Below the pieces are notes generated by a model that had not been told where the DNA came from, searched no databases, and saw only the letters and a list, made by a program, of their open reading frames with translations. From the IMG/VR virus record IMGVR_UViG_3300037070_001829, positions 1 to 28,500 of that record: a DNA stretch of 28,500 nt. One strand, written 5' to 3'. The translations under genes were made by a program, and so were the position numbers. This document shows positions 1-28,500 of the stretch, piece after piece (position 1 is the first letter of the stretch; each line of letters begins with the position of its first letter). Origin of the DNA: a virus.

Positions 1-224
1 GAAATGTCGGACGGCTTCATCTGCATGTAGCGCAGGATATGCAGGACGACTTCGCGCTGCCCCTCGTTGTGCGCCATTGTAATCGGGTCGCCAGCGAAGG
101 TCGAACCGAGGACGTAGTGGCGGGCGATTAAGTCGTGGATAACCCGCTTGCCCTCCGCCGAGCCGAACACCATCCGGTAGTCGGCCAGCCGCATGCGGTC
201 GTCGTATTTCATGCGGACGGTCAT
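1..224 (-). CDS. Bbp19-like phage protein, partial (C-terminus outside window)
   Basis: The first 74 codons of a leftward gene are present; the rest lies beyond the left edge. The ATG at 224-222 overlaps the portal stop codon as ATGA, so the two are translationally coupled. The visible N-terminus begins MTVRMKYDDRMRLADYR and continues with VFGSAEGKRVIHDLIARHYV and a G-Q-R-E-V-V-L-H-I-L stretch. This pattern (D.R...Y..VF.t..GK.Vl.DL....G.R....I) is what I recall for the small Bbp19-like family encoded beside portal and capsid genes in podophages such as Bordetella phage BPP-1. Its molecular role is unknown; position suggests a head-assembly accessory. The identification is from memory of the family pattern. 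Confidence 0.65.
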   Translation of the reverse strand, partial: MTVRMKYDDRMRLADYRMVFGSAEGKRVIHDLIARHYVLGSTFAGDPITMAHNEGQREVVLHILRYMQMKPSDI

Positions 225-2020
225 TGCGGTGCGCCGCTAACCGCCGAGCGGATGGCCGGACCTGCGCCCTGCGCCAGCGAGGTGATCATCTGCTGGATGT
301 TCTGGCCGCCCTGCTCCGGGGCTGGCTGCGGCACCGGGCCGCCTTGGGCGGGCGGCGGTAGCTGCGGCACCGGCATCTGCTGCGCCATGCCAGTGGCCTC
401 GACGCCCTGCTTGCCAGCCGAGGCGATGCTGTCTACGCCGCCTGCGCCTTGCTGGAAGGCCTTCGCCAGCATGGGGATCATCTGCATCATGCGCTGATTG
501 TTCTGCTGCTGCGCCGCCTGCTCGTTCTGGTCGTCGGTCTTGAGCAGGTCGTCATCCACCCCGAACCAGTCGAACAGCGCGGGCGTGATCTTGGCCACGT
601 CGATGGGAGCGAATAGCTGCTGGGCGATTTCCGGCCCCAGCTTGGCGAGCGGCTCCAGCGTGGCGATCACCTGCTGGAAGCCTTGCGCGATCTGCGACTT
701 CTGCGCCCTAGCAAGCGGCGACTGGTACTCGATGCGCATGTCGGCGTTCTGGATTTCCTCGGGCGGCTGCTCGAATGCGCCGTGCCGGTACATGATGCCG
801 AACACCCGCTCCACCAGTGGGTTGAGAAATTCGTTCTCAAGGCGTCCCAGCACCGGGCCGAGCAGGCGCATGCGTTCGGTCTGCCGCTGGATCACCTCGG
901 TGGCGGTCATCTTGAAGTCGCCGACGAACTGCACCTGATCCACGAACATCGTAGTGCGGATCGCATTGTCCAGTTGCTGAATGTATTCGCCAGCGTAGGG
1001 CAGGATCGCCGAGGTCGGCATCTGGCCGATTTCGGTCTTGTTGCGCAGGTAGGTCAGCGAGCCAGCGTACTGGCGGACGGGACCGACGAGGCCTTCATGC
1101 GGGACGGTGAGCGGTGGATCGACCGCCTTTTCTGCGGCACGCATGACAGTCCGGGTTGCTGCGTTTGCCACCTTGATCTGCGGCAACGCGGTCATCGCGG
1201 GGGAGCGCCCGTGGACCTCGCCGGAAATAACCCACCAGCGCGGAATGACATAGGGCATTTCCTCGACGCCGCTTTCTTCGAGGACGTGCTGTTCTTCCTC
1301 TTGGATGTAGCAGATGGCTATCGGCATGTTGGTCGGCAGCTTGTTGCCGTAGGTGCGGTCCTTGTCCTCGCGCGGCGTGCAGACGTTGATCACCTTGTGC
1401 TTGTCGTCGTACTTGCCGTCGTCCCACAGCTTCTTGATGCGGCTCGACACCTTGTCGCCCCAGATTTGGACCATCTGCCGCACCGTGTACATGCTGTCGC
1501 GCATGACGGTATCGACAAAGCCGTACTGGTTCTCGGCGATGCAGCAGTCGAAGATCGGGTAGGTCTTGACGAAGATATGCCCCGTTCGCTGCTGGCCAAT
1601 GTACATCGCGGCGGTGCCGAGCGATGCCATGTCCTCCAGTAGCTGGTTGGCCTGCGAATGGAACGCGGTCTTGGGCGATGACAGCGCGTTGCTGATCATC
1701 TTGCTGACGTTGTTGGTCCAGTGCCGCGCCTTCTCCATCTGGTCGAGCGCCTCGTCGGCCAGCCGGATGTTGAGCCAGTTGGTCGCCGGGTTCATCAGCA
1801 TGCCGTGCATGGCCGCCGCCAAGGTCTGCACGCACTGGATGCCGATGGGGTCGTATATCTGCGGGCTGATGCGCCGGTCGCCATCGACCCGAGGTCCGAC
1901 TGCGCCCATGCGGCGCGGCGCGCAGTAGCGGGCGATGTCCTCCCACATATTGCGCCAGTTGGCGCGGTCGCTGTCGAGCACCTTGTAGCGCCTGATCAGC
2001 TTCTCCGGGTCAACGGACAT
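221..2020 (-). CDS. Head-tail connector (portal) protein, T7 gp8-like
   Basis: This 599-aa protein is the portal, the dodecameric ring at the capsid vertex through which DNA is packaged and ejected and to which the tail attaches. The N-terminus (residues 5-45, RRYKVLDSDRANWRNMWEDI, then CAPRR) is characteristic of podovirus head-tail connector proteins, and the family pattern continues to about residue 480 (for example MHGMLMNPATNWLNIRL). The last 110 residues are rich in Gln, Pro, Gly and Met, a low-complexity tail that probably faces the capsid lumen. It is longer than T7 gp8 (about 536 aa), mostly because of this tail. The start has a GAGG site about 6 nt upstream, and the gene overlaps the HExxH gene by 11 nt upstream and the Bbp19-like gene by ATGA downstream. 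Confidence 0.93.
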   Translation of the reverse strand: MSVDPEKLIRRYKVLDSDRANWRNMWEDIARYCAPRRMGAVGPRVDGDRRISPQIYDPIGIQCVQTLAAAMHGMLMNPATNWLNIRLADEALDQMEKARHWTNNVSKMISNALSSPKTAFHSQANQLLEDMASLGTAAMYIGQQRTGHIFVKTYPIFDCCIAENQYGFVDTVMRDSMYTVRQMVQIWGDKVSSRIKKLWDDGKYDDKHKVINVCTPREDKDRTYGNKLPTNMPIAICYIQEEEQHVLEESGVEEMPYVIPRWWVISGEVHGRSPAMTALPQIKVANAATRTVMRAAEKAVDPPLTVPHEGLVGPVRQYAGSLTYLRNKTEIGQMPTSAILPYAGEYIQQLDNAIRTTMFVDQVQFVGDFKMTATEVIQRQTERMRLLGPVLGRLENEFLNPLVERVFGIMYRHGAFEQPPEEIQNADMRIEYQSPLARAQKSQIAQGFQQVIATLEPLAKLGPEIAQQLFAPIDVAKITPALFDWFGVDDDLLKTDDQNEQAAQQQNNQRMMQMIPMLAKAFQQGAGGVDSIASAGKQGVEATGMAQQMPVPQLPPPAQGGPVPQPAPEQGGQNIQQMITSLAQGAGPAIRSAVSGAPQ

Positions 2021-4129: not shown

Positions 4130-4312
4130 TCACTTGCCGCCCGCCTTCTTCTGCACGCTCTGCTGCTCGAAGGCGTCCAGCGTGTCCTCGGCGTTAAGCT
4201 GCACGGCGCAGCGGGTGCAGTAGGCGGTGCCGTCGGCGCGCCTGATCCAGTCGTGCTCCGGTCCCTTCTCGATGTTATCGCAGGGCATCTTCGCCGGGTT
4301 AGTGACGCGCAT
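4130..4312 (-). CDS. Small Cys-containing hypothetical protein
   Basis: A 60-aa protein of unknown family. It contains C11, H20 and a C-x-x-C pair in TAYCTRCAVQLNAEDT, which could make a small zinc ribbon, and a Lys-rich end. It overlaps the membrane-protein gene upstream by 14 nt and abuts the gp13-like gene downstream, so it belongs to the leftward operon. No function is proposed. Confidence 0.65.
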   Translation of the reverse strand: MRVTNPAKMPCDNIEKGPEHDWIRRADGTAYCTRCAVQLNAEDTLDAFEQQSVQKKAGGK

Positions 4313-14047: not shown

Positions 14048-14875
14048 ATGGCGAATACGAAGAAGCGGAGCAGCGTCAAGGCCGTGCTGCGCGAAGCGGG
14101 CACGGCGCTGACCGAGCGCGGAAAAGTTCGAGTTGCCGGGATGGTGATACCGGCACCGCCAATGATGATGACCGACGAGCAGGCCTTCATCGCTCTGATC
14201 GACCGGGCCGCGCGCGACCCGAAATTCGACAGCGACAAGTTCAAGATGCTGATGGACGCTCGCGCCAAGGAACGCGCCGAGCGCGCGTCAGCCGAGTACT
14301 CGCTGTCCATGTCGGAGGTGCAGGAGAAGCTGGAGCCGGTGCGGCGCGACTGCGAGAACCGGCAAACGCGGTCGCGCTACGCCAGCTACGAGGCGCTCGA
14401 CCGCGCCATCAGGCCGACCTACACGGCTCACGGCTTCGCGCTGTCGTTCTCGACCGAGGGTATTTCGGTCACCGACACCATGCGCGTCACCTGCCGGGTA
14501 CTGCACCGCGCCGGTCACACCGAGCACCACCAGATCGACATTCCCATCGTGACCAAAGGCCCGCAGGGCAAGGACGTGATGACCGCAACGCACGCCGCGA
14601 TGTCAGCCAAGACCTACGGCATGCGCGGGCTGCTCACCATGATCTTCAACGTCGCCCTCACCGATGACGATGGCAACGGTGCCGGGAGCGGCGGGCCGGT
14701 TTCCGACGAGCAGCTTTGGACGCTGGGTGAGTGGATCAAGAAAACAAACGCCAATGTCGCCGACTTCTGCGACTACATGGGCGTGGACGCGCTGGTCAAC
14801 CTGCCAGCCAAAAAGTTCGGCGAGGCCAAGGCCGCGCTGGAACTGAAGGCAAAACAACAGGGGGTGACGCTATGA
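14048..14875 (+). CDS. ERF-family single-strand annealing protein
   Basis: A 275-aa recombinase. After a basic N-terminus and a coiled segment (AKERAERASAEYSLSMSEVQ), residues 105-215 hold the ERF core: TRSRYASYEALDRAIRPTYT, HGFALSFST, VTCRVLHRAGHTEHHQIDIP, and GKDVMTATHAAMSAKTYGMR followed by GLLTMIF. The C-terminus is a small helical domain. ERF proteins anneal complementary single strands and act with an exonuclease, as in phage P22. The partner exonuclease is the next gene, overlapping as ATGA. AGGAGGGG precedes the start. Confidence 0.88.
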   Translation: MANTKKRSSVKAVLREAGTALTERGKVRVAGMVIPAPPMMMTDEQAFIALIDRAARDPKFDSDKFKMLMDARAKERAERASAEYSLSMSEVQEKLEPVRRDCENRQTRSRYASYEALDRAIRPTYTAHGFALSFSTEGISVTDTMRVTCRVLHRAGHTEHHQIDIPIVTKGPQGKDVMTATHAAMSAKTYGMRGLLTMIFNVALTDDDGNGAGSGGPVSDEQLWTLGEWIKKTNANVADFCDYMGVDALVNLPAKKFGEAKAALELKAKQQGVTL

Positions 14876-15528
14876 GCAGTCAGGCAGCGACAGCATTCGT
14901 CCAGCAGCCAGCGATCATCGAACAAGGTTCGCCTGAATGGTTCGCGTTGCGTTGCGGCAAGGTGACGGCGTCCCGCATTTCGGACCTGATGGCGAAGGCG
15001 CGCACGCCCGGCAAGGGTGTGCGCGCCAATTACATGGCGCAGATCATGCTGGAGCGCATGACCGGCGTCCCCGGCAAGACCTACCAGAACGCCACCATGG
15101 AGGAAGGCAACCAGTGGGAGCCGAAGGCCCGCGCCGCCTACATTTTTATGACCGGCTTCTCGGTCAGCAAGGTCGCGTTCGTTGATCACCCGGACGTTCC
15201 CAAGTCGGGCTGCTCGCCGGACGGGTTTGTATCAACGGACGGCCTGCTCGAAATTAAGTGCCCGTTCGCGAACACGCATTTCACCACGCTGACCGACGGC
15301 GAGGTCCCCGACGAGTACATGAAGCAGATGCAATGGGCGCTCGCCTGCACCGGGCGGGCATGGTGCGACTACGTCAGCTACAATGACGACATGCCAGAGA
15401 ACATGAAGCTGTTCATCAAGCGGGTGCCTCGCTCGAACCAGATGATCGGCGAACTGACCGACGCGGTGCGCTCGTTCCAGACCGAGGTCGATCTGCGCCT
15501 GTCGGTGCTGCGGGAGAAGTTCCCGTGA
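14872..15528 (+). CDS. YqaJ/lambda-type recombination exonuclease
   Basis: A 218-aa protein; ATG 14872 overlaps the ERF stop as ATGA. Conserved parts are SPEWFALRCGKVTASRISDL (residues 20-39), the EEGNQWEPKAR helix (78-88), GCSPDGFV (D117) and LLEIKCP (E127, K129), which together are the PD-(D/E)XK nuclease site of YqaJ/lambda exonuclease proteins. It should degrade one strand from double-strand ends to feed the ERF protein. Together the two form a Red-like recombination module, useful for repair, concatemer formation or circularisation. Confidence 0.9.
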   Translation: MSSQAATAFVQQPAIIEQGSPEWFALRCGKVTASRISDLMAKARTPGKGVRANYMAQIMLERMTGVPGKTYQNATMEEGNQWEPKARAAYIFMTGFSVSKVAFVDHPDVPKSGCSPDGFVSTDGLLEIKCPFANTHFTTLTDGEVPDEYMKQMQWALACTGRAWCDYVSYNDDMPENMKLFIKRVPRSNQMIGELTDAVRSFQTEVDLRLSVLREKFP

Positions 15529-22068: not shown

Positions 22069-25000
22069 CTATTGGGTCGGAACTCTAAAACCGCCGCCGG
22101 TCGGTCTGCCGAAGCGGTCGGGTAGCGGCTCTTGGATCGGTCGCACATTCTCGGTTCGGCGCTGCACGCGGCGGTCCTCGATACCACGGCCTTGATAGGG
22201 GATGTTCAGCTTCTGATGCTCGCGGTGCGCAAGGCCAGCCTGAATTTCCGCGTAGAATTCTGGGAAGCGCCACGGGGCCTCCGACATGATCTGCCGCTGC
22301 GCCGCCGTCCTGTACTCCTGCGCCCATTGCTTGATGTAGGCCGCCTTGCCGCTATCGGTGCCGGTGCCGTCCGGCTCGCTCTTGTTCTGGTAAATGTGCG
22401 AGTAGCGCGGGTCGCCCCCGGACACCATCCGGTTCAGGAAGTCCTCCAGCCCGATCTTCTCGCCGGTCTTGGGGTTGTGCTGGAGTTCGTTGCCAGCCAG
22501 CCGCCGATAGTAGTCGAGGACCTCGGGGTGGTCGCGGAAGTTGACCTGCACGCCCATGAACGGGGCCGACCACTCGATGCGCTGGATGCCGCTGCGCAGC
22601 CGCACCAGTTCGTTGAAGGTCGCGTGGTCCTTCTTCCAGCTAAGTCGGAACGGCATGAAGAAGTTGTAGAGCGCGCCCGCAGCGCCTGCGGGCTGGTTCT
22701 CTACCTCCTTGCCAAATACGTCGCGCACCGGGATCAGCCTGTCGGACAGCCCCGGCATGTTCTTGAACAGCACCGCGTCGTACCAGCTACCGACCTGCCG
22801 CTGCTGCGGGTCCATCGCCGAGCCGATTGCGCGCAGGGGCGCGAGGCCGGGAACGCCAGCGGTGACCGCGCTGCCCGCGAGGTCGCGGAAGTAACTGCCG
22901 AGCGCGCCGCTGCTGCCGCGCTTGTAGGTGTCCATGCCGCTCGCCATCTTGGAGAAGCTGGTCATAAAAGTCTGGTCGGTGAACGAGTAGGCCATGATGG
23001 CTATTGCGGTGTTGAGCCATTCGTCAATCGTGTCGTAGGCCTCCGGGTGGATGTCGCGGTTCTTCATCATCTGGTCCAGCCCGCCCGCGAAGGCGATCAT
23101 GGGAGCAAGCTGACCCAGCCCGGTGATGCCGACCTGCATGCCTCCCGGTCGTTGCAGCGAGTACGGCTTGATGCCAGCCCCCTCCAGCGACTGCCGCCAT
23201 GCCGGTTCGTGCGGCAGCGGGCCACTCAGGTTGCCGTTCTGCGCGTAGTCGAACAGCAGCGACGTTGCCGCCGCCCCGGTGGTGACCTTGGCCAGCGCGA
23301 GGTCGCGCGCGGCCCCACCTGCCGCGAAGTCCTTGCGCCAGTTGCCAATGACGAACGCCAGCGGCGAATGCTCCGCAGCGTTGGCCAGCAGCCGGTTCGG
23401 CGTGCGCACATAGGGCATGACCAGATGGATCGGCTGGTAGGCCGTGCGCAGGTTCATCAGGCCCTGCCCGAGCGCACCCGGCGCGTCGTTGAAGGTCGCG
23501 TAGTTGGCGTGTGACATCGCCGACAGCTTGATGTTCTGCGGCGGGTTCGCGATCAGGTCGGTGACCCGATTGACGTAGGCATTGCCCTGCAATCCCTCTG
23601 ACAGCGCCAGCCTGTGCGCCTGCGCCTCGATTTCCCCACGGAAGGCAATGACCTTGAAGAAGTCGTCGCCAGCGGCAAGGAAGCGCCCCGGTATCCTGAC
23701 GGTGCCGCCGATGAAGTCGATGGCCCTGCCCATGACGGTCTTGCCGAACTCAACCTGCTCGACCGCCGACTTGCCCATCTTTTCGGCCACCGCCTTCGAA
23801 GTGGACGGGGAGAACAACGTCGCGCCGCTACCGAAGGCGTCGGTGGCCGCGCTGCCGCCATGCAGCGGAGCGAACTGCCGCTCGCCGGTAGCGACCGCCC
23901 TGCCTGCGGTGCGGAATGCCTCCTTGAACGCGGAAAGCTGGCCGCGCATGTAGGCCGCCGCCTCGCCATCGACCACGCCGTCGCCGAGGTCGCGGCCCAG
24001 CACCATCGAATACTTTTCGGCGGTCTTGCGGTCCACCGACTGCCAGATCGCGTTTGCGCTGTTGCCGACAAGGTTGCGCACCTGCGTGACCGGCTTCCAC
24101 AGGAACGACAAGGCGTAGGCCTCCTTGTAGACATCCCACGCCCAGCGGCCCCAGCCACGATTGAGCGCGAGGTTCATCGCCCCCGGCGCGGCCCCGTCCG
24201 CGTGCATCTGGATGATCATGCTCGACAGGTTGCGCGCCCCGTCCACGCCGCCGGTCCCGATCAGGAACTCGTGCATGGCCTGCGCCCGCGCGATGTTGCC
24301 TTCGGCGTGTACGGCACGCAGCGCGCCGAGCGCGCGGCCAGCCTCACCCGATACCCCGAGGAAACTTTCGAGGATGGCCATGTGCGTGACCATCTGCTCG
24401 TTGACCCGGAAGGTGTCGGCCAGCGACGAGTGCGGCAGTTCGGCGATCTTCGCCAGTTCGAGCAGCTTGGCGTGTGACGAGTTGAGCAGCCTGCCCGCCG
24501 CGATGATCTGCTCTCCGCTGTAGGCCTCGCCCAGCTTGCGCGCGAGGAACTGGTCGTGCGTCATGTTGAGCGCCTCGGCCATGTCCTTCTGCGCCGCCAG
24601 CGTCAGCACGCCCCGCTTGGCCTCGCTGATGTTCGGCTTGATCTGCTCCGCGAGGTCGCCGATCACGCCGGGAATGTTGGCCTTGTCGATGTTCTCCCAA
24701 GTTATATTCGTGTTGAGGTCCGACAGCTTGACCGCCTTGGCAGTCTCGCGGACCTTCTCGCCGATGGCCTTGGCGGTGACCTGACCCGGCACCGAAGGGC
24801 CGAACTCCGCGCGCAGCTTCGCCTCCTTGGCCGCCGCTTCCGGCCCCGGCCAATGCTGCTTTGCCCATGCTTCTTCGAAGCCGTCCGCCACCTGCTTGGT
24901 GACGCGGTCCACCTCGGCCTTGCCTGCCTCGTCAAGCGTCGATTTATCGACCCGCTTGATGGTGTCGTACAGATTGTGCAGCTTCTCCTGCACAGCACCG

Positions 25001-26622
25001 ATTTCCTTCGGCACGATCTGGATTTCGGCGGTCAGGCCGGGCCGCATTTCGACCTGCGCATGGATGGCCCGGTAGCCGTATTGCGGGTTGGCGATCTTGT
25101 CGTCCACGTTGAGCAGCTTGCCGAACCTGTCCTCCAGCCGCGCCAGCACGTCGCTGGCGGCCTGCGGGCTGTCCACATGAATGCGGCCCCCAAGGTAGTC
25201 GCCAATCGCCTCCGGTGGCCTCCCTGTGGCGATCTTGTTCTCGACCCCCTTGAGTTCCTTCGCCCGCGCTCCGAACACCCGCGCGCCCTCGACCCCGTCA
25301 ACCACCTGCGCCAAATCGGCTTTTAGCCCTTCGACATTTTTATTCGCCTCTGCTATAATGGCACGATGATCGGCGGTGCCCTGCCAGATGGGCTTCCCCG
25401 CAACACTTGAAGGTCGTCCAATGGTGAATTCGTCCCAGCCCGGTAGTGGCTCTTTTGTCCGCGTGATGTCAGGCCCCGTCCTCGTGGACGGCGGCATCGT
25501 CCGGCTGATCGAGACTTCTGATGGTGGCGGCAGGGTCGAAAGCTGGGATGGTCGCGCTTGGGTGCCGGGAGGCGCGACGGTCAAGGAAGTGCTCAAAGGC
25601 ACGCCGGTCGCCGACCCCTCCGCTGGAGCGCCCACCGATACCGAGAGCGCGGGCGCGTCAGGGGAAACTCCGCCGGTCGCCTTGGACACGAAGTCGTCGG
25701 CATGACGCGCTGCGTCAGCCGCAGCCGCGTCCGCTGGCGCGCCGGGGATGCCAGCCTGCTGCGCGCCCTTTGCCTTTAGCATCGAGCGGGTGAACTTGGC
25801 CGAGGCCACGATGCCGCGCAGGATGCCCTCCGCCACCACGCCCGTCGCCACGCCTTCCACCGCATTGCGCAGCCGGTTTACGGCTGCGTTGTCGTTCGGG
25901 TCGGTCGCGAGGAACTCAGATACCGGACCCTTGAGTGTGGGAAACTTTTCCACAACCATGTTGGTAAGGTTCGGCTTGTCCGGGTCGTTGCCCAAGAACA
26001 TCGACAGCCCGCCCGCCCCCGACATTGCCGCCACGCTGCCGACCCCTGCCGCCGCCAGCGCCTTCGAGAACGGCCTGTAGCCCACCATGAACTTGGTGAA
26101 GTCACGAATGAGGCCGCCGGTCACGCTGTCGGCCTCGCCACCGATGCCCAGCACGTTCTTCGCCGTTAACTCCATCTGCTTGGGGTCGTTCGGGTCGCGC
26201 CCTTGATTGACGGCGATGGCATTCGTCAGTTCCTGACGCCTCGCCTTGTCAGCCGCCTGCGTTTCCGGGGTGCCAACCAGCCACTCGGGTGCGTTCATGT
26301 TCAGCCAGTCGCCGAACTCGCCCACGGCGGACCCGGCGTTGCGCCAGAAGTCGAAATAGCCCTCGGCCACCTGCCCCGGCGCGGACAGCGCACCCTTGGC
26401 CACGTCCTTGCCGACCGCCACGGTGCCCTTGCCGATCCGTTGCAACAGGCTCGACTGTTCATCATGCGCGGGCGTCGGCTGCGCAGGTTCCGGCGGCTCG
26501 TCCGGCGGCGCGGTGCCGCGCTGCTTCATGCCGTCGAGCAGGCGCTGGAACTGCGCCTGATCGCCGCGCTCGCGCGTGTTTTCCAAGTAGACGTTGTCTG
26601 TCGTCTGTTCGCCGAGCGGCAT
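22069..26622 (-). CDS. Giant internal-virion-type protein with RelA/SpoT synthetase domain
   Basis: A 1517-aa protein in the position of the large T7-like ejection protein, so probably packed in the capsid and injected. Residues 60-215 contain small hydrophobic stretches; 310-415 are a Pro/Ser/Thr-rich linker. Residues 420-560 match the RelA/SpoT nucleotidyltransferase domain: RAKELKGVENK (R453, K455, K463, like R.K...S...K), DYLGGRIHVDS (D475, R480), NPQYGYRAIHAQV (Y517, H521) and TAEIQIVPKE (E533, Q535). The remaining 900 residues are helix-rich and resemble large podophage virion proteins (WKPVTQVRNLVGNSANAI; YQPIHLVMPYVRTPNRL). No peptidoglycan-lytic motif was seen. ATGA links it to the previous gene. 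Whether the domain makes (p)ppGpp, modifies tRNA or is inactive is unknown. An antisense promoter and ORF lie within it. Confidence 0.85.
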   Translation of the reverse strand: MPLGEQTTDNVYLENTRERGDQAQFQRLLDGMKQRGTAPPDEPPEPAQPTPAHDEQSSLLQRIGKGTVAVGKDVAKGALSAPGQVAEGYFDFWRNAGSAVGEFGDWLNMNAPEWLVGTPETQAADKARRQELTNAIAVNQGRDPNDPKQMELTAKNVLGIGGEADSVTGGLIRDFTKFMVGYRPFSKALAAAGVGSVAAMSGAGGLSMFLGNDPDKPNLTNMVVEKFPTLKGPVSEFLATDPNDNAAVNRLRNAVEGVATGVVAEGILRGIVASAKFTRSMLKAKGAQQAGIPGAPADAAAADAARHADDFVSKATGGVSPDAPALSVSVGAPAEGSATGVPLSTSLTVAPPGTQARPSQLSTLPPPSEVSISRTMPPSTRTGPDITRTKEPLPGWDEFTIGRPSSVAGKPIWQGTADHRAIIAEANKNVEGLKADLAQVVDGVEGARVFGARAKELKGVENKIATGRPPEAIGDYLGGRIHVDSPQAASDVLARLEDRFGKLLNVDDKIANPQYGYRAIHAQVEMRPGLTAEIQIVPKEIGAVQEKLHNLYDTIKRVDKSTLDEAGKAEVDRVTKQVADGFEEAWAKQHWPGPEAAAKEAKLRAEFGPSVPGQVTAKAIGEKVRETAKAVKLSDLNTNITWENIDKANIPGVIGDLAEQIKPNISEAKRGVLTLAAQKDMAEALNMTHDQFLARKLGEAYSGEQIIAAGRLLNSSHAKLLELAKIAELPHSSLADTFRVNEQMVTHMAILESFLGVSGEAGRALGALRAVHAEGNIARAQAMHEFLIGTGGVDGARNLSSMIIQMHADGAAPGAMNLALNRGWGRWAWDVYKEAYALSFLWKPVTQVRNLVGNSANAIWQSVDRKTAEKYSMVLGRDLGDGVVDGEAAAYMRGQLSAFKEAFRTAGRAVATGERQFAPLHGGSAATDAFGSGATLFSPSTSKAVAEKMGKSAVEQVEFGKTVMGRAIDFIGGTVRIPGRFLAAGDDFFKVIAFRGEIEAQAHRLALSEGLQGNAYVNRVTDLIANPPQNIKLSAMSHANYATFNDAPGALGQGLMNLRTAYQPIHLVMPYVRTPNRLLANAAEHSPLAFVIGNWRKDFAAGGAARDLALAKVTTGAAATSLLFDYAQNGNLSGPLPHEPAWRQSLEGAGIKPYSLQRPGGMQVGITGLGQLAPMIAFAGGLDQMMKNRDIHPEAYDTIDEWLNTAIAIMAYSFTDQTFMTSFSKMASGMDTYKRGSSGALGSYFRDLAGSAVTAGVPGLAPLRAIGSAMDPQQRQVGSWYDAVLFKNMPGLSDRLIPVRDVFGKEVENQPAGAAGALYNFFMPFRLSWKKDHATFNELVRLRSGIQRIEWSAPFMGVQVNFRDHPEVLDYYRRLAGNELQHNPKTGEKIGLEDFLNRMVSGGDPRYSHIYQNKSEPDGTGTDSGKAAYIKQWAQEYRTAAQRQIMSEAPWRFPEFYAEIQAGLAHREHQKLNIPYQGRGIEDRRVQRRTENVRPIQEPLPDRFGRPTGGGFRVPTQ
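25323..25359 (+). promoter_or_regulatory. Antisense promoter P4 inside the giant virion gene
   Basis: TTAGCCCT abuts -35 TCGACA (25331-25336), followed by 17 nt and a perfect -10 TATAAT (25354-25359). It has the same box-plus-promoter layout as P1-P3. The virion gene uses uncommon A/T-rich codons exactly here (ATA, AAT, AAA, CTA), as if constrained by the promoter. It points rightwards into the antisense ORF at 25421. Confidence 0.6.
25421..25705 (+). CDS. Possible antisense overprinted gene, 94 aa
   Basis: A rightward ORF lying wholly opposite the Pro/Ser/Thr-rich linker of the giant virion protein. It starts about 55 nt after the predicted start of promoter P4, with AAGG about 7 nt before the ATG (an upstream GTG at 25376 is in frame). 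The product has an ordered-looking front half (SFVRVMSGPVLVDGGIVRLI, then ETSDGGGRVESWDGRAWVPG) and an acidic Ser/Thr/Pro tail. Caution: its third codon positions coincide with those of the sense gene, a register that easily yields chance ORFs in GC-rich DNA. The promoter is the stronger evidence. No family recognised. Confidence 0.35.
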   Translation: MVNSSQPGSGSFVRVMSGPVLVDGGIVRLIETSDGGGRVESWDGRAWVPGGATVKEVLKGTPVADPSAGAPTDTESAGASGETPPVALDTKSSA

Positions 26623-28500
26623 CAGATGTCCTCCTGCCGCATTTGATTAAGGCGCGCACCCATCACGTCCTCGGGCTTGTAGGCGTTCTGGTCTGGGTTC
26701 GGACCACTCGCTGGCGGCTTCTCGATCTGGTCTTGAGCCGGACGGGTTCCCGGCGGCGGCACGCCCGGCGGCGGCACGATGATCGACATCTTCTGCGGGT
26801 TCTCGTTCGGAGCAGGCGGCGGCACCTTGGTCGCCGGTTTCAGCGCATTGGGCTGCGTGGCCTTCTGCTGCTGCTGCTTCTTCAGCCGCTGATCCTCGCG
26901 CAGCGTATCGCGCCACTGATTGATCAGGTTCTGCTGGGTGGAAAGGTCAGCAACGTTTCCCCTTTTGGCTATCACGTCGGCATCCAGCTTGGCCTGCGCC
27001 GCGTCGATGTCGCCCTCGACAATGTCGCGGCGCGTCTTGCTGCCGGTATCGAAATAGCGCGAGAACGGCAGCCGGTCGCGTACCGCTGCGGCGGTGTCAT
27101 CGCGCGCACGCCGGATGATGTCGTCAGCCTTGTTGAACATGGCTGCCCGGTTGTCGAGTAGCGGCTTGTTGGCCGGGTCGTTGGTGAAGTCGTCATATTC
27201 GCGCAGCGCCAGTTCCATGCGCTTGCGGGCGTCCTCGCCCTCCAGCCCCGCCACGCCGGGAGTGAGCACGCCATGAATGTGATCGCGCGCGGAAACGACC
27301 GGCGGCTTCAGGCCCTGCCGCCAAGCGTCGGCGTTGCGCCGTGCCAGTTCGCCCGCCTTGGTGCCGTCGATGCTGCGGTTACGGATGGCCGCCTGCAAGG
27401 TCGCGTTGAATTCGGCGGGCGGCTGCGCGCGGACATCGTTCTCCAGTTGGATCATCGCCCCCGGATCGTCGCGGGTCGGCGGCTTGTCGCGCAGGGTATA
27501 GGCGGTGTGCAGTTGGTGATCGGACAGGAACTGCTTGCGCTCGTCAATCATCTGCTGCGTCACCTCCTTGCCGCTGAAGGCGGCGTCGGTGAGTTCCTTC
27601 ATCTTCTCGACCCCGAGGCGGGCGATGCGCTTGTTGTTGGCCTCGATGGTCTTGGTCATCAGGAGCGCGGCTTCTTGGTAGTTTTTTGTGCGCTGCAAGA
27701 ATGCTGGGTCCTGCGGGTCCACGAATTGCGGGTTCAGCTTTTCCAGATCGCGCTGCATCTGCTCCGGGGTCGTGTCCGGCCCCCATTGCGTGCTGCCGTG
27801 GTACGACAGGTTCGCCTCGCGCTCCGCCAAAATCCGGGTGCCGTCATGCGGCCCGAACACCATCATCACCGCCTGCGGGGTCCAGCGTCCGTTGACGCCT
27901 TCCTGCCCGTGCGCCTTGGCTGCCATTTCTTCCTGCTTGAAGTCGTCCTCGGCGGCCTTGCGCACCTGCGTCCTAAGCCGCTCGCGTTCGGCCTGCACCG
28001 AGCGCATGCGCGCGTCCCAATGTTCTTCGCTCTGCCGCATTTCCTTCGGGGTCTGCCCGAGCAAGGGCGCTGCGCTGGTGCCGCCCAGCCCCTCGGCCCC
28101 CGCCACCTGCACCGGCTTGGCCTTTTCGCCCGAGGCGATTGACCGGGCCTCGCTCTCGTGCAGCCTCTGCGCGTACTCGTCCGCCGCCGATGAACTGTCG
28201 AACACCCCGAGGTGCTTGCCGCTGGTGCGGAACTGGTCGAGCGCGGCCTGATCGGACAGGATGCCGCTGCCGTCGTGCGCTACGGTCGGAATGAGCACGT
28301 TCTTGCCGTCCTCCAGACTGAAGGAAGCCGAGCGCACCGTGCTGACCGTGCCGTCCGCGTTCCTGACGCGCGGCTGCTTGGAAACGTCGATGTTGCCGGG
28401 TTCGACCTGACCGCGCTGCACGCGCACCACCGACATGGGCGACGGCTCGCCGCCCTTGCCCCCGGTGACCTTCTGGTCCCACATGGCGATGAAGTCGCGC
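26622..28500 (-). CDS. Internal-virion-type protein, partial (N-terminus outside window)
   Basis: At least 625 aa, open through the right edge (the edge codons read RDFIAMWDQKVTGGKGG), so the start is probably outside; an in-window start at 28484 or 28436 lacks a ribosome site. From MSVVRVQRGQVEPGNIDVSK through NADGTVSTVRSASFSLEDGK, LIPTVAHDGSGILSDQAAL, TSGKHLGVFDSSSAADEYAQ and RLHESEA is a module I recall from large podophage virion proteins. Then come long charged helices (MRSVQAERERLRTQVRKAAE) and a Pro-rich end (VPPPAPNENP, then IIVPPPGVPPPG). Probably an ejection or inner-core protein acting with the 1517-aa protein, whose ATG overlaps its stop. The cut N-terminal part might hold an enzymatic domain. 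Confidence 0.75.
   Translation of the reverse strand, partial: RDFIAMWDQKVTGGKGGEPSPMSVVRVQRGQVEPGNIDVSKQPRVRNADGTVSTVRSASFSLEDGKNVLIPTVAHDGSGILSDQAALDQFRTSGKHLGVFDSSSAADEYAQRLHESEARSIASGEKAKPVQVAGAEGLGGTSAAPLLGQTPKEMRQSEEHWDARMRSVQAERERLRTQVRKAAEDDFKQEEMAAKAHGQEGVNGRWTPQAVMMVFGPHDGTRILAEREANLSYHGSTQWGPDTTPEQMQRDLEKLNPQFVDPQDPAFLQRTKNYQEAALLMTKTIEANNKRIARLGVEKMKELTDAAFSGKEVTQQMIDERKQFLSDHQLHTAYTLRDKPPTRDDPGAMIQLENDVRAQPPAEFNATLQAAIRNRSIDGTKAGELARRNADAWRQGLKPPVVSARDHIHGVLTPGVAGLEGEDARKRMELALREYDDFTNDPANKPLLDNRAAMFNKADDIIRRARDDTAAAVRDRLPFSRYFDTGSKTRRDIVEGDIDAAQAKLDADVIAKRGNVADLSTQQNLINQWRDTLREDQRLKKQQQQKATQPNALKPATKVPPPAPNENPQKMSIIVPPPGVPPPGTRPAQDQIEKPPASGPNPDQNAYKPEDVMGARLNQMRQEDI

What the first reader, a model, noticed from the sequence alone, without database searches (positions are those of the whole stretch)
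24940..25365. RelA/SpoT-type synthetase domain inside an ejected virion protein
Residues 420-560 of the 1517-aa protein carry the residues known for Rel synthetase catalysis (R453/K455/K463, D475, Y517, H521, E533-Q535). A virion-borne alarmone or tRNA pyrophosphate transferase would act at the moment of DNA entry, before any phage gene is expressed. Multi-domain polyvalent proteins in phages are known, but this domain in a T7-type ejection protein is unusual as far as I know.
Basis: partly seen in the sequence, partly recalled or inferred. Interest (0 to 1): 0.8.

Follow-up and report, generated by a model that had tools for sequence, protein, structure and literature searches.

The report
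Alarmone-synthetase domain in phage ejection protein
A short-tailed phage and its relatives carry an apparently intact stress-signal (RelA/SpoT-type) enzyme domain inside the large internal protein that such phages normally push into the bacterium ahead of their DNA, so the phage may deliver a ready-made metabolic switch at the moment of entry.

Summary
Residues about 409-562 of the 1517-aa ORF (window 22069-26622, minus strand) form a RelA/SpoT synthetase domain. The slice passes Pfam's cut-off narrowly. A 13-member family profile hits only RSH enzymes strongly in the PDB (best 1.6e-9). The AlphaFold model (pLDDT 89.9) matches B. subtilis RelQ at Z 16.3.

The host protein is an internal virion protein D (phrog_6651) lying between a gp15-like gene and a T7-type tail-fibre gene. 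It has no detectable sequence homology to T7 gp16 itself.

Eleven viral contigs (about five lineages) carry the domain at this site; more distant homologues lack it, so it is a cassette. Relatives of the domain occur in a 3024-aa polyvalent protein near a DNA-ejection gene and in other phage proteins.

RelA/SpoT domains in phage polyvalent and MuF proteins were described in 2017, so the theme is known. The ejection-protein architecture and this subfamily look new.

Best reading: an ejected, ATP-using 3'-pyrophosphokinase. Acceptor (GTP/ATP or tRNA-CCA), activity and virion presence are untested. New variant of a known kind.

The parts
22069..26622 (-). 1517-aa internal virion (ejection) protein D-like gene that hosts the domain
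   Evidence: phrog_6651 internal virion protein 1.1e-23; tblastn to annotated internal virion protein D of Autographiviridae and other podoviruses, best E-value 4e-13, 22-31% identity; relatives with 52-92% identity
24937..25398 (-). RelA/SpoT-type synthetase domain, residues 409-562
   Evidence: Pfam PF04607, PDB profile hits, model and fold match
25018..25266 (-). Catalytic residues R453, K455, K463, D475, R480, Y517, H521, E533, Q535 (codon span)
   Evidence: alignments; mapped to donor and acceptor sites of FaRel2 and SaRelP described in PMC11782079 and PMC5794853
24808..24936 (-). C-terminal helices of the modelled module, residues 563-605 (aligned with the C-terminal part of small alarmone synthetases)
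   Evidence: model m91f71ca17e6e, aligned range 10..196 to RelQ
25399..25752 (-). Pro/Ser/Ala-rich linker, residues 291-408, conserved before the domain and partly shared with a polyvalent protein
25753..26622 (-). N-terminal part of the ejection protein (residues 1-290), with hydrophobic stretches 188-206 and 257-275
   Evidence: alignment with other internal virion protein D sequences; hydropathy
22072..24705 (-). C-terminal part of the ejection protein (residues 640-1517)
   Evidence: phrog_6651 match; a profile of this region finds the other internal virion protein D sequences at 2e-48 or better
26622..28500 (-). gp15-like gene upstream, cut by the window end
   Evidence: overlapping stop/start with the ejection gene; full-length relatives in L001 and L019
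20339..22060 (-). T7-type tail-fibre gene directly downstream, 8-nt gap, no room for an immunity gene
   Evidence: PHROGs tail protein matches; sequence

Best explanation
It is a small-alarmone-synthetase-type domain carried as a cassette inside a podoviral ejection protein. Shown: homology, fold, intact donor-site residues and acceptor tyrosine, purifying selection, insertion between two conserved parts of the ejection protein, recurrence in related phages. Inferred: the protein is packaged, is ejected with or before the DNA, and the domain reaches the cytoplasm, where it takes pyrophosphate from ATP and puts it on a 3'-OH. I think the likelier acceptor is a purine nucleotide (a (p)ppGpp- or (p)ppApp-like product), so that host transcription, translation or purine metabolism is shifted before any phage gene is expressed. 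tRNA-CCA is the next candidate.
For: Fold and family. Donor site: R453, K455, K463, D475, R480, E533 and Q535 correspond to FaRel2 R64, K66, K74, D90, R95, E145 and Q147, and H549 to SaRelP His190. Acceptor Tyr517 and His521 are invariant in 13/13. Selection: dN/dS 0.185 for the domain against 0.09-0.19 for the comparable segments of the protein in window versus L002. Insertion: L034 joins the flanking parts with about 80 residues where the window has about 370. Cassette exchange: L086 is 84% identical to the window in the last 187 residues but only 57% in the domain, while its domain is 69-70% identical to L019/L025. Same subfamily in a 3024-aa polyvalent protein near a DNA-ejection gene, L087. 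T7 gp16's C-terminal part is placed in the host cytoplasm (PMC8954989). Nearest folds are RelQ and RelP (Z 15-16), ahead of Tas1 13.3, CapRel 12.7 and FaRel2 7.7.
Against: No enzyme assay and no proof of packaging. The Syn4 arginine of RSH enzymes (EIQIR) is V537 here and V/I in 11 of 13 family members, and the Ser of the SxH guanosine motif is Ala. The domain lies between the N- and C-terminal parts, so it could end up in the periplasm, where ATP is lacking. T7 gp16 is present in few copies. At the RelP/RelQ rates in PMC5794853 (about 200 per minute per molecule) a handful of molecules would make only micromolar product per minute; the rate of toxic synthetases (about 100,000 per minute, PMC12691689) would be needed for a millimolar change. 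No sequence homology to T7 gp16 was detectable.
Confidence: 0.55

Rival explanations
1. Ejected tRNA-CCA pyrophosphotransferase (toxSAS-like): it pyrophosphorylates the 3' end of host tRNA and stops host translation during entry.
For: GYRA-x-H at the acceptor loop is the same as in phage Phrann PhRel, which PMC12691689 lists as a tRNA-modifying enzyme; CapRel is among the structural matches, Z 12.7; few molecules could modify the tRNA pool at toxic rates.
Against: FaRel2 is a weaker structural match (Z 7.7) than RelQ/RelP; the N-terminal helix of the domain shows no obvious basic patch like FaRel2 K28/R29 (sequence reading only); stopping translation would also stop the phage unless transient; no antitoxin gene is adjacent.
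Confidence: 0.25
2. Catalytically dead or purely structural domain kept as a spacer or folding unit in the ejectosome.
For: Syn4 arginine lost; insertion in a variable region of a protein family that works without it; two distant relatives (L095, L096) have changed catalytic residues.
Against: All nine core catalytic residues are kept in the other 11 aligned family members, although identity to the window falls to 25%; a spacer would not need them. MuF Apk2 enzymes are active although their Syn4 motif also differs (PMC12226406).
Confidence: 0.17
3. The domain acts against a host defence or a competing phage (for example by making or draining a nucleotide signal, or by decoying RelA-family defence such as CapRel) and not on host growth itself.
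For: Polyvalent-protein domains are proposed to counter host conflict systems (PMC5512222); cassette-like exchange of the module; presence or lack of (p)ppGpp helps some phages and hinders others (PMC12814882).
Against: No defence target is indicated by any sequence evidence here.
Confidence: 0.1

Closest known systems
RelA/SpoT domains of phage polyvalent proteins and MuF fusions (Iyer et al. 2017, PMC5512222)
   Same: RelA/SpoT synthetase domain embedded in a large phage protein thought to be delivered with the DNA; L087 of the present subfamily is such a polyvalent protein (ddrB-ParB, RadC, RelA_SpoT, LPD38).
   Different: [quoted passage not shown] Here the carrier is a podoviral internal virion protein D in which no MPTase, MuF or LPD domain was found.
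Apk2 / MuF (p)ppApp synthetases of temperate phages (PMC12226406)
   Same: RSH-fold synthetase fused to a phage head protein.
   Different: Apk2 sits at the C-terminus after MuF, has GxN at Syn3, and is followed by two immunity genes; here the domain is internal, has AxH, and no gene fits between it and the tail fibre.
RelQ/RelP small alarmone synthetases
   Same: Closest fold (Z 15-16) and the same ATP site.
   Different: Stand-alone bacterial tetramers with GYRSxH and EIQIR; here GYRAIH and EIQIV inside a phage protein.
toxSAS enzymes FaRel2, PhRel, CapRel
   Same: Same donor-site residues and acceptor tyrosine.
   Different: Encoded with, or fused to, an antitoxin; tRNA recognition region not evident here.
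T7 gp16 / internal virion protein D
   Same: Gene order gp15-like, large protein, tail fibre; internal virion protein family phrog_6651.
   Different: T7 gp16 belongs to phrog_342, has an N-terminal transglycosylase and no RelA domain; no significant profile match.

Membership tests
RelA/SpoT homologue (RSH) synthetase domain | Sequence match to the RelA_SpoT family above the curated cut-off | tested here: met
   27.6 bits vs 27.0 for the slice, 27.0 for a longer slice; profile vs PDB 1.6e-9
RelA/SpoT homologue (RSH) synthetase domain | Catalytic set R.K.......K, D....R, GY...H, E.Q | tested here: met
   all present; kept in at least 12 of 13 relatives
RelA/SpoT homologue (RSH) synthetase domain | Synthetase fold | tested here: met
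   model pLDDT 89.9; RelQ Z 16.3, 175 residues, 3.5 A
RelA/SpoT homologue (RSH) synthetase domain | ATP:3'-OH pyrophosphotransferase activity | not testable with these tools
   needs purified protein
(p)ppGpp synthetase (RelP/RelQ/Rel type) | SxH guanosine motif at Syn3 and Arg at Syn4 (EIQIR) | tested here: not met
   A519-x-H521 and V537; motifs described in PMC12226406. Does not exclude activity on GTP
MuF-Apk2 (p)ppApp synthetase | GxN at Syn3 | tested here: not met
   A-x-H in 13/13
MuF-Apk2 (p)ppApp synthetase | MuF domain fused upstream | tested here: inconclusive
   full-length Pfam scan gave no family, but it also missed the RelA domain
toxSAS toxin-antitoxin | Adjacent antitoxin or immunity gene | tested here: not met
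   gp15-like stop overlaps the start; tail fibre begins 8 nt after the stop
Phage internal virion protein D | Family match to internal virion proteins of podoviruses | tested here: met
   phrog_6651 1.1e-23; annotated internal virion protein D hits
Phage internal virion protein D | Gene order: gp15-like, large protein, tail fibre | tested here: met
   window and L019 compared with T7
T7 gp16 proper | Sequence homology to T7 gp16 | tested here: not met
   profile gives -0.8 bits; different PHROG family
T7 gp16 proper | Same fold as T7 gp16 | tested here: inconclusive
   C-terminal model pLDDT 54; no significant match
Polyvalent protein (Iyer et al.) | Several effector domains in one delivered protein | tested here: inconclusive
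   only the RelA domain was found in the window protein; relative L087 is a polyvalent protein
Phage internal virion protein D | Present in virions and ejected | not testable with these tools
   needs virion mass spectrometry and infection assays

The most novel reading that the evidence does not exclude
A lineage of short-tailed phages builds an active nucleotide-signal synthetase into its own DNA-ejection channel protein, so each ejected channel subunit delivers an alarmone (or tRNA-modifying) pulse at the inner membrane before phage gene expression; the module is swapped as a cassette between ejection proteins and polyvalent proteins and forms a subfamily of its own with a changed acceptor site.
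Probability: 0.4. Interest if true: 0.8.

Novelty: new variant of a known kind. Interest (0 to 1): 0.62.

Why it matters
If active, it would be an enzyme that reprograms host nucleotide signalling or translation at time zero of infection, delivered by a structural part of the ejectosome. Whether (p)ppGpp helps or hinders a phage is open and varies between phages (PMC12814882); a phage that brings its own synthetase makes that question directly testable. It also adds podoviral ejection proteins to the list of delivery platforms for RelA/SpoT effectors, beside MuF, type VI, exported and polyvalent ones.

Tried and rejected
Chance match: rejected by relatives, profile and fold; a strict active-site pattern in 2.4 million six-frame residues matched only loci already known to encode RelA-type domains (these loci were fetched for that reason, so this is a specificity check only). 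Search for the whole protein and its C-terminal part in bacterial genomes: nothing found, so no sign of a prophage copy, within the limits of pattern search. Search of 50,697 phage records with the domain and with three related modules: no significant relative. PADLOC gave only a weak candidate-defence match (PDC-S33, 4e-4), ascribed to the shared RelA fold. Other enzyme domains in seven homologous ejection proteins: none found in Pfam, though full-length scans can miss diverged domains. T7 RNA polymerase in related contigs: no hit, but the control was empty too. Integrase: none in six related records, which may be fragments. Fold of the C-terminal part: model too poor; T7 ejectosome chain 7k5c appears only at E 2.9. 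A homology link from the window C-terminal part to L087 (LPD38) or L095: none by hhalign. One search fetched an unrelated record by a mistaken accession and was not used. The domain tree is too small and its deep branches too weak to date the acquisition.

Full report
What was checked. The window is an entire 28.5-kb virus record from a viral metagenome collection. The ORF at 22069-26622 on the minus strand encodes 1517 residues, has a good ribosome-binding site and starts within the stop of the upstream ORF; the tail-fibre gene starts 8 nt after its stop.

Is the domain real? A Pfam scan of the full protein found nothing, but the slice around residues 409-562 matches RelA_SpoT at 27.6 bits, just above the cut-off of 27.0. 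On its own that is thin, so I collected relatives. Scans of viral contigs found the same domain in ten further contigs with the same kind of carrier protein (88-100% identical in the nearest, 52-57% in three other lineages) and in about a dozen others at 25-40% identity. PF04607 is found in 12 of 13 members of the resulting alignment. A profile of the family against PDB sequences gives 17 RSH enzymes from 1.6e-9 to 6e-5 and nothing else below 0.6. AlphaFold2 gives a confident model (pLDDT 89.9, pTM 0.84) whose best matches are small alarmone synthetases: RelQ Z 16.3, RelP about 15, then Tas1 13.3, an exported Streptomyces synthetase 13.1, CapRel 12.7, Rel 10-12, FaRel2 7.7; the first chain outside the family is at 6.9.

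Is it intact? The ATP site described for FaRel2 (R64, K66, K74, D90, R95, E145, Q147; PMC11782079) and SaRelP (R78, K80, K88, D107, R112, E174, H190; PMC5794853) is present as R453, K455, K463, D475, R480, E533, Q535 and H549. Two further donor-site positions (FaRel2 S70 and R77) are not kept. The acceptor tyrosine is Y517. Nine core positions are identical in at least 12 of 13 sequences, where only 20 columns reach that level. Two departures are shared by most of the family: Ala instead of Ser in the GYRSxH motif, and Val or Ile instead of Arg in EIQIR. MuF Apk2 enzymes also depart at Syn3 and Syn4 and are active (PMC12226406), so these departures speak to the acceptor more than to activity. 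In the pair with unsaturated synonymous change (window and L002) dN/dS of the domain is 0.185, within the range of the rest of the protein (0.09-0.19).

What carries it? The protein matches phrog_6651 'internal virion protein' and, by tblastn, annotated internal virion protein D of Pelagibacter, Roseobacter, Desulfovibrio and other podoviruses. A profile of its C-terminal half finds all of these at 2e-48 or better. It does not match T7 gp16 detectably, and the C-terminal model was too poor to compare folds. 'T7-type ejection protein' therefore rests on gene order (gp15-like gene, large protein, tail fibre; compare T7) and on the phrog_6651 family.

How did it get there? In the homologue L034 the two conserved parts (window 165-268 and 640-1461) are joined by about 80 residues instead of about 370; L036 and L037 show similar short joins. 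None of the distant homologues found has the domain by profile search, while all members of the close group that span the region have it. L086 is 84% identical to the window in its last 187 residues but 57% in the domain, whereas its domain is 69-70% identical to those of L019 and L025: this is best read as the module having moved between ejection proteins. The similarity between the window protein and the 3024-aa protein in L087 begins in the Pro/Ser-rich linker (residues 331-602). L087 carries ddrB-ParB, RadC, RelA_SpoT and LPD38, is a polyvalent protein, and lies two genes downstream of a phrog_598 DNA-ejection gene. L095 carries the domain in a protein between a head protein and a virion structural protein. 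The same module thus recurs in putatively delivered phage proteins.

How would it work? T7 ejects gp14, gp15 and gp16; the N-terminal part of gp16 stays in the periplasm and the C-terminal part is placed in the cytoplasm (PMC8954989). In the window protein the RelA module follows two hydrophobic stretches (188-206, 257-275), so if these enter the inner membrane the module would face ATP in the cytoplasm; this is inference. Copy number sets a bound (my arithmetic): about six molecules at the 100,000 per minute quoted for toxic synthetases (PMC12691689) would change a nucleotide by about 1 mM per minute in a 1-fl cell, but at the roughly 200 per minute measured for RelP/RelQ (PMC5794853) only by about 2 micromolar. 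So either the enzyme is fast, it acts on a scarce target such as tRNA, or it acts locally. I favour a nucleotide product because RelQ and RelP are the nearest folds, with tRNA second because of the PhRel-like AxH motif; the data do not settle it.

Novelty. RelA/SpoT domains in phage polyvalent proteins and MuF fusions were reported in 2017 and predicted to shift the host's transcription and translation (PMC5512222), and MuF versions have been shown to make (p)ppApp (PMC12226406). The idea of a delivered RelA domain is therefore known. I found no report of it in an internal virion (ejection) protein of a podovirus (within an open-access library), and no isolate among 50,697 phage records with a significant relative. 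Structures of viral proteins in BFVD include several unnamed or RelA-annotated large phage proteins with the same domain, which supports a wider, largely unstudied theme. I rate it a new variant of a known kind.

Noticed in passing
L087 2814-11885: 3024-aa phage polyvalent protein with ddrB-ParB, RadC-JAB, RelA_SpoT and LPD38 domains, two genes downstream of a phrog_598 DNA-ejection gene. The 2017 survey lists RadC only in conjugative elements, so its presence in a phage-type polyvalent protein departs from it.
   Followed up: partly
L088, L090, L092, L094, L097 (for example L092 7293-8702): Stand-alone 396-470-aa phage proteins with a hydrophobic, glycine-rich N-terminal part and a RelA_SpoT domain of the same subfamily; in L097 the gene lies two genes upstream of a portal gene. 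Function and delivery unknown.
   Followed up: partly
window 26622-28500; L019 3259-6720: The gp15-like protein (1154 aa in L019) has an ESGG motif; its only PDB sequence hits are lytic transglycosylase MltE (E 0.9). The cell-wall enzyme may have moved from the gp16 slot to the gp15 slot in this lineage.
   Followed up: partly
L019 3259-6720 and window 26622-28484: A unit resembling 'VFDSSxAAxxYAxRL' occurs in the gp15-like protein of the window and of L019, apparently more than once in L019; unexplained.
   Followed up: no
L002 2425-6880: The 92%-identical copy of the ejection gene is split by frame changes near its start and near position 4229; assembly errors or real decay not distinguished.
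   Followed up: no
window 14048-15528 (+): Erf-like ssDNA-annealing protein and RecE-like exonuclease pair on the opposite strand.
   Followed up: no
window 221-2020 (-): Portal protein nearest to those of HTVC010P-like Pelagibacter phages (37-38% identity).
   Followed up: no
L096 1247-1846: Family member with changed catalytic residues (K455 to Thr, R480 to Ser), possibly an inactive copy.
   Followed up: no
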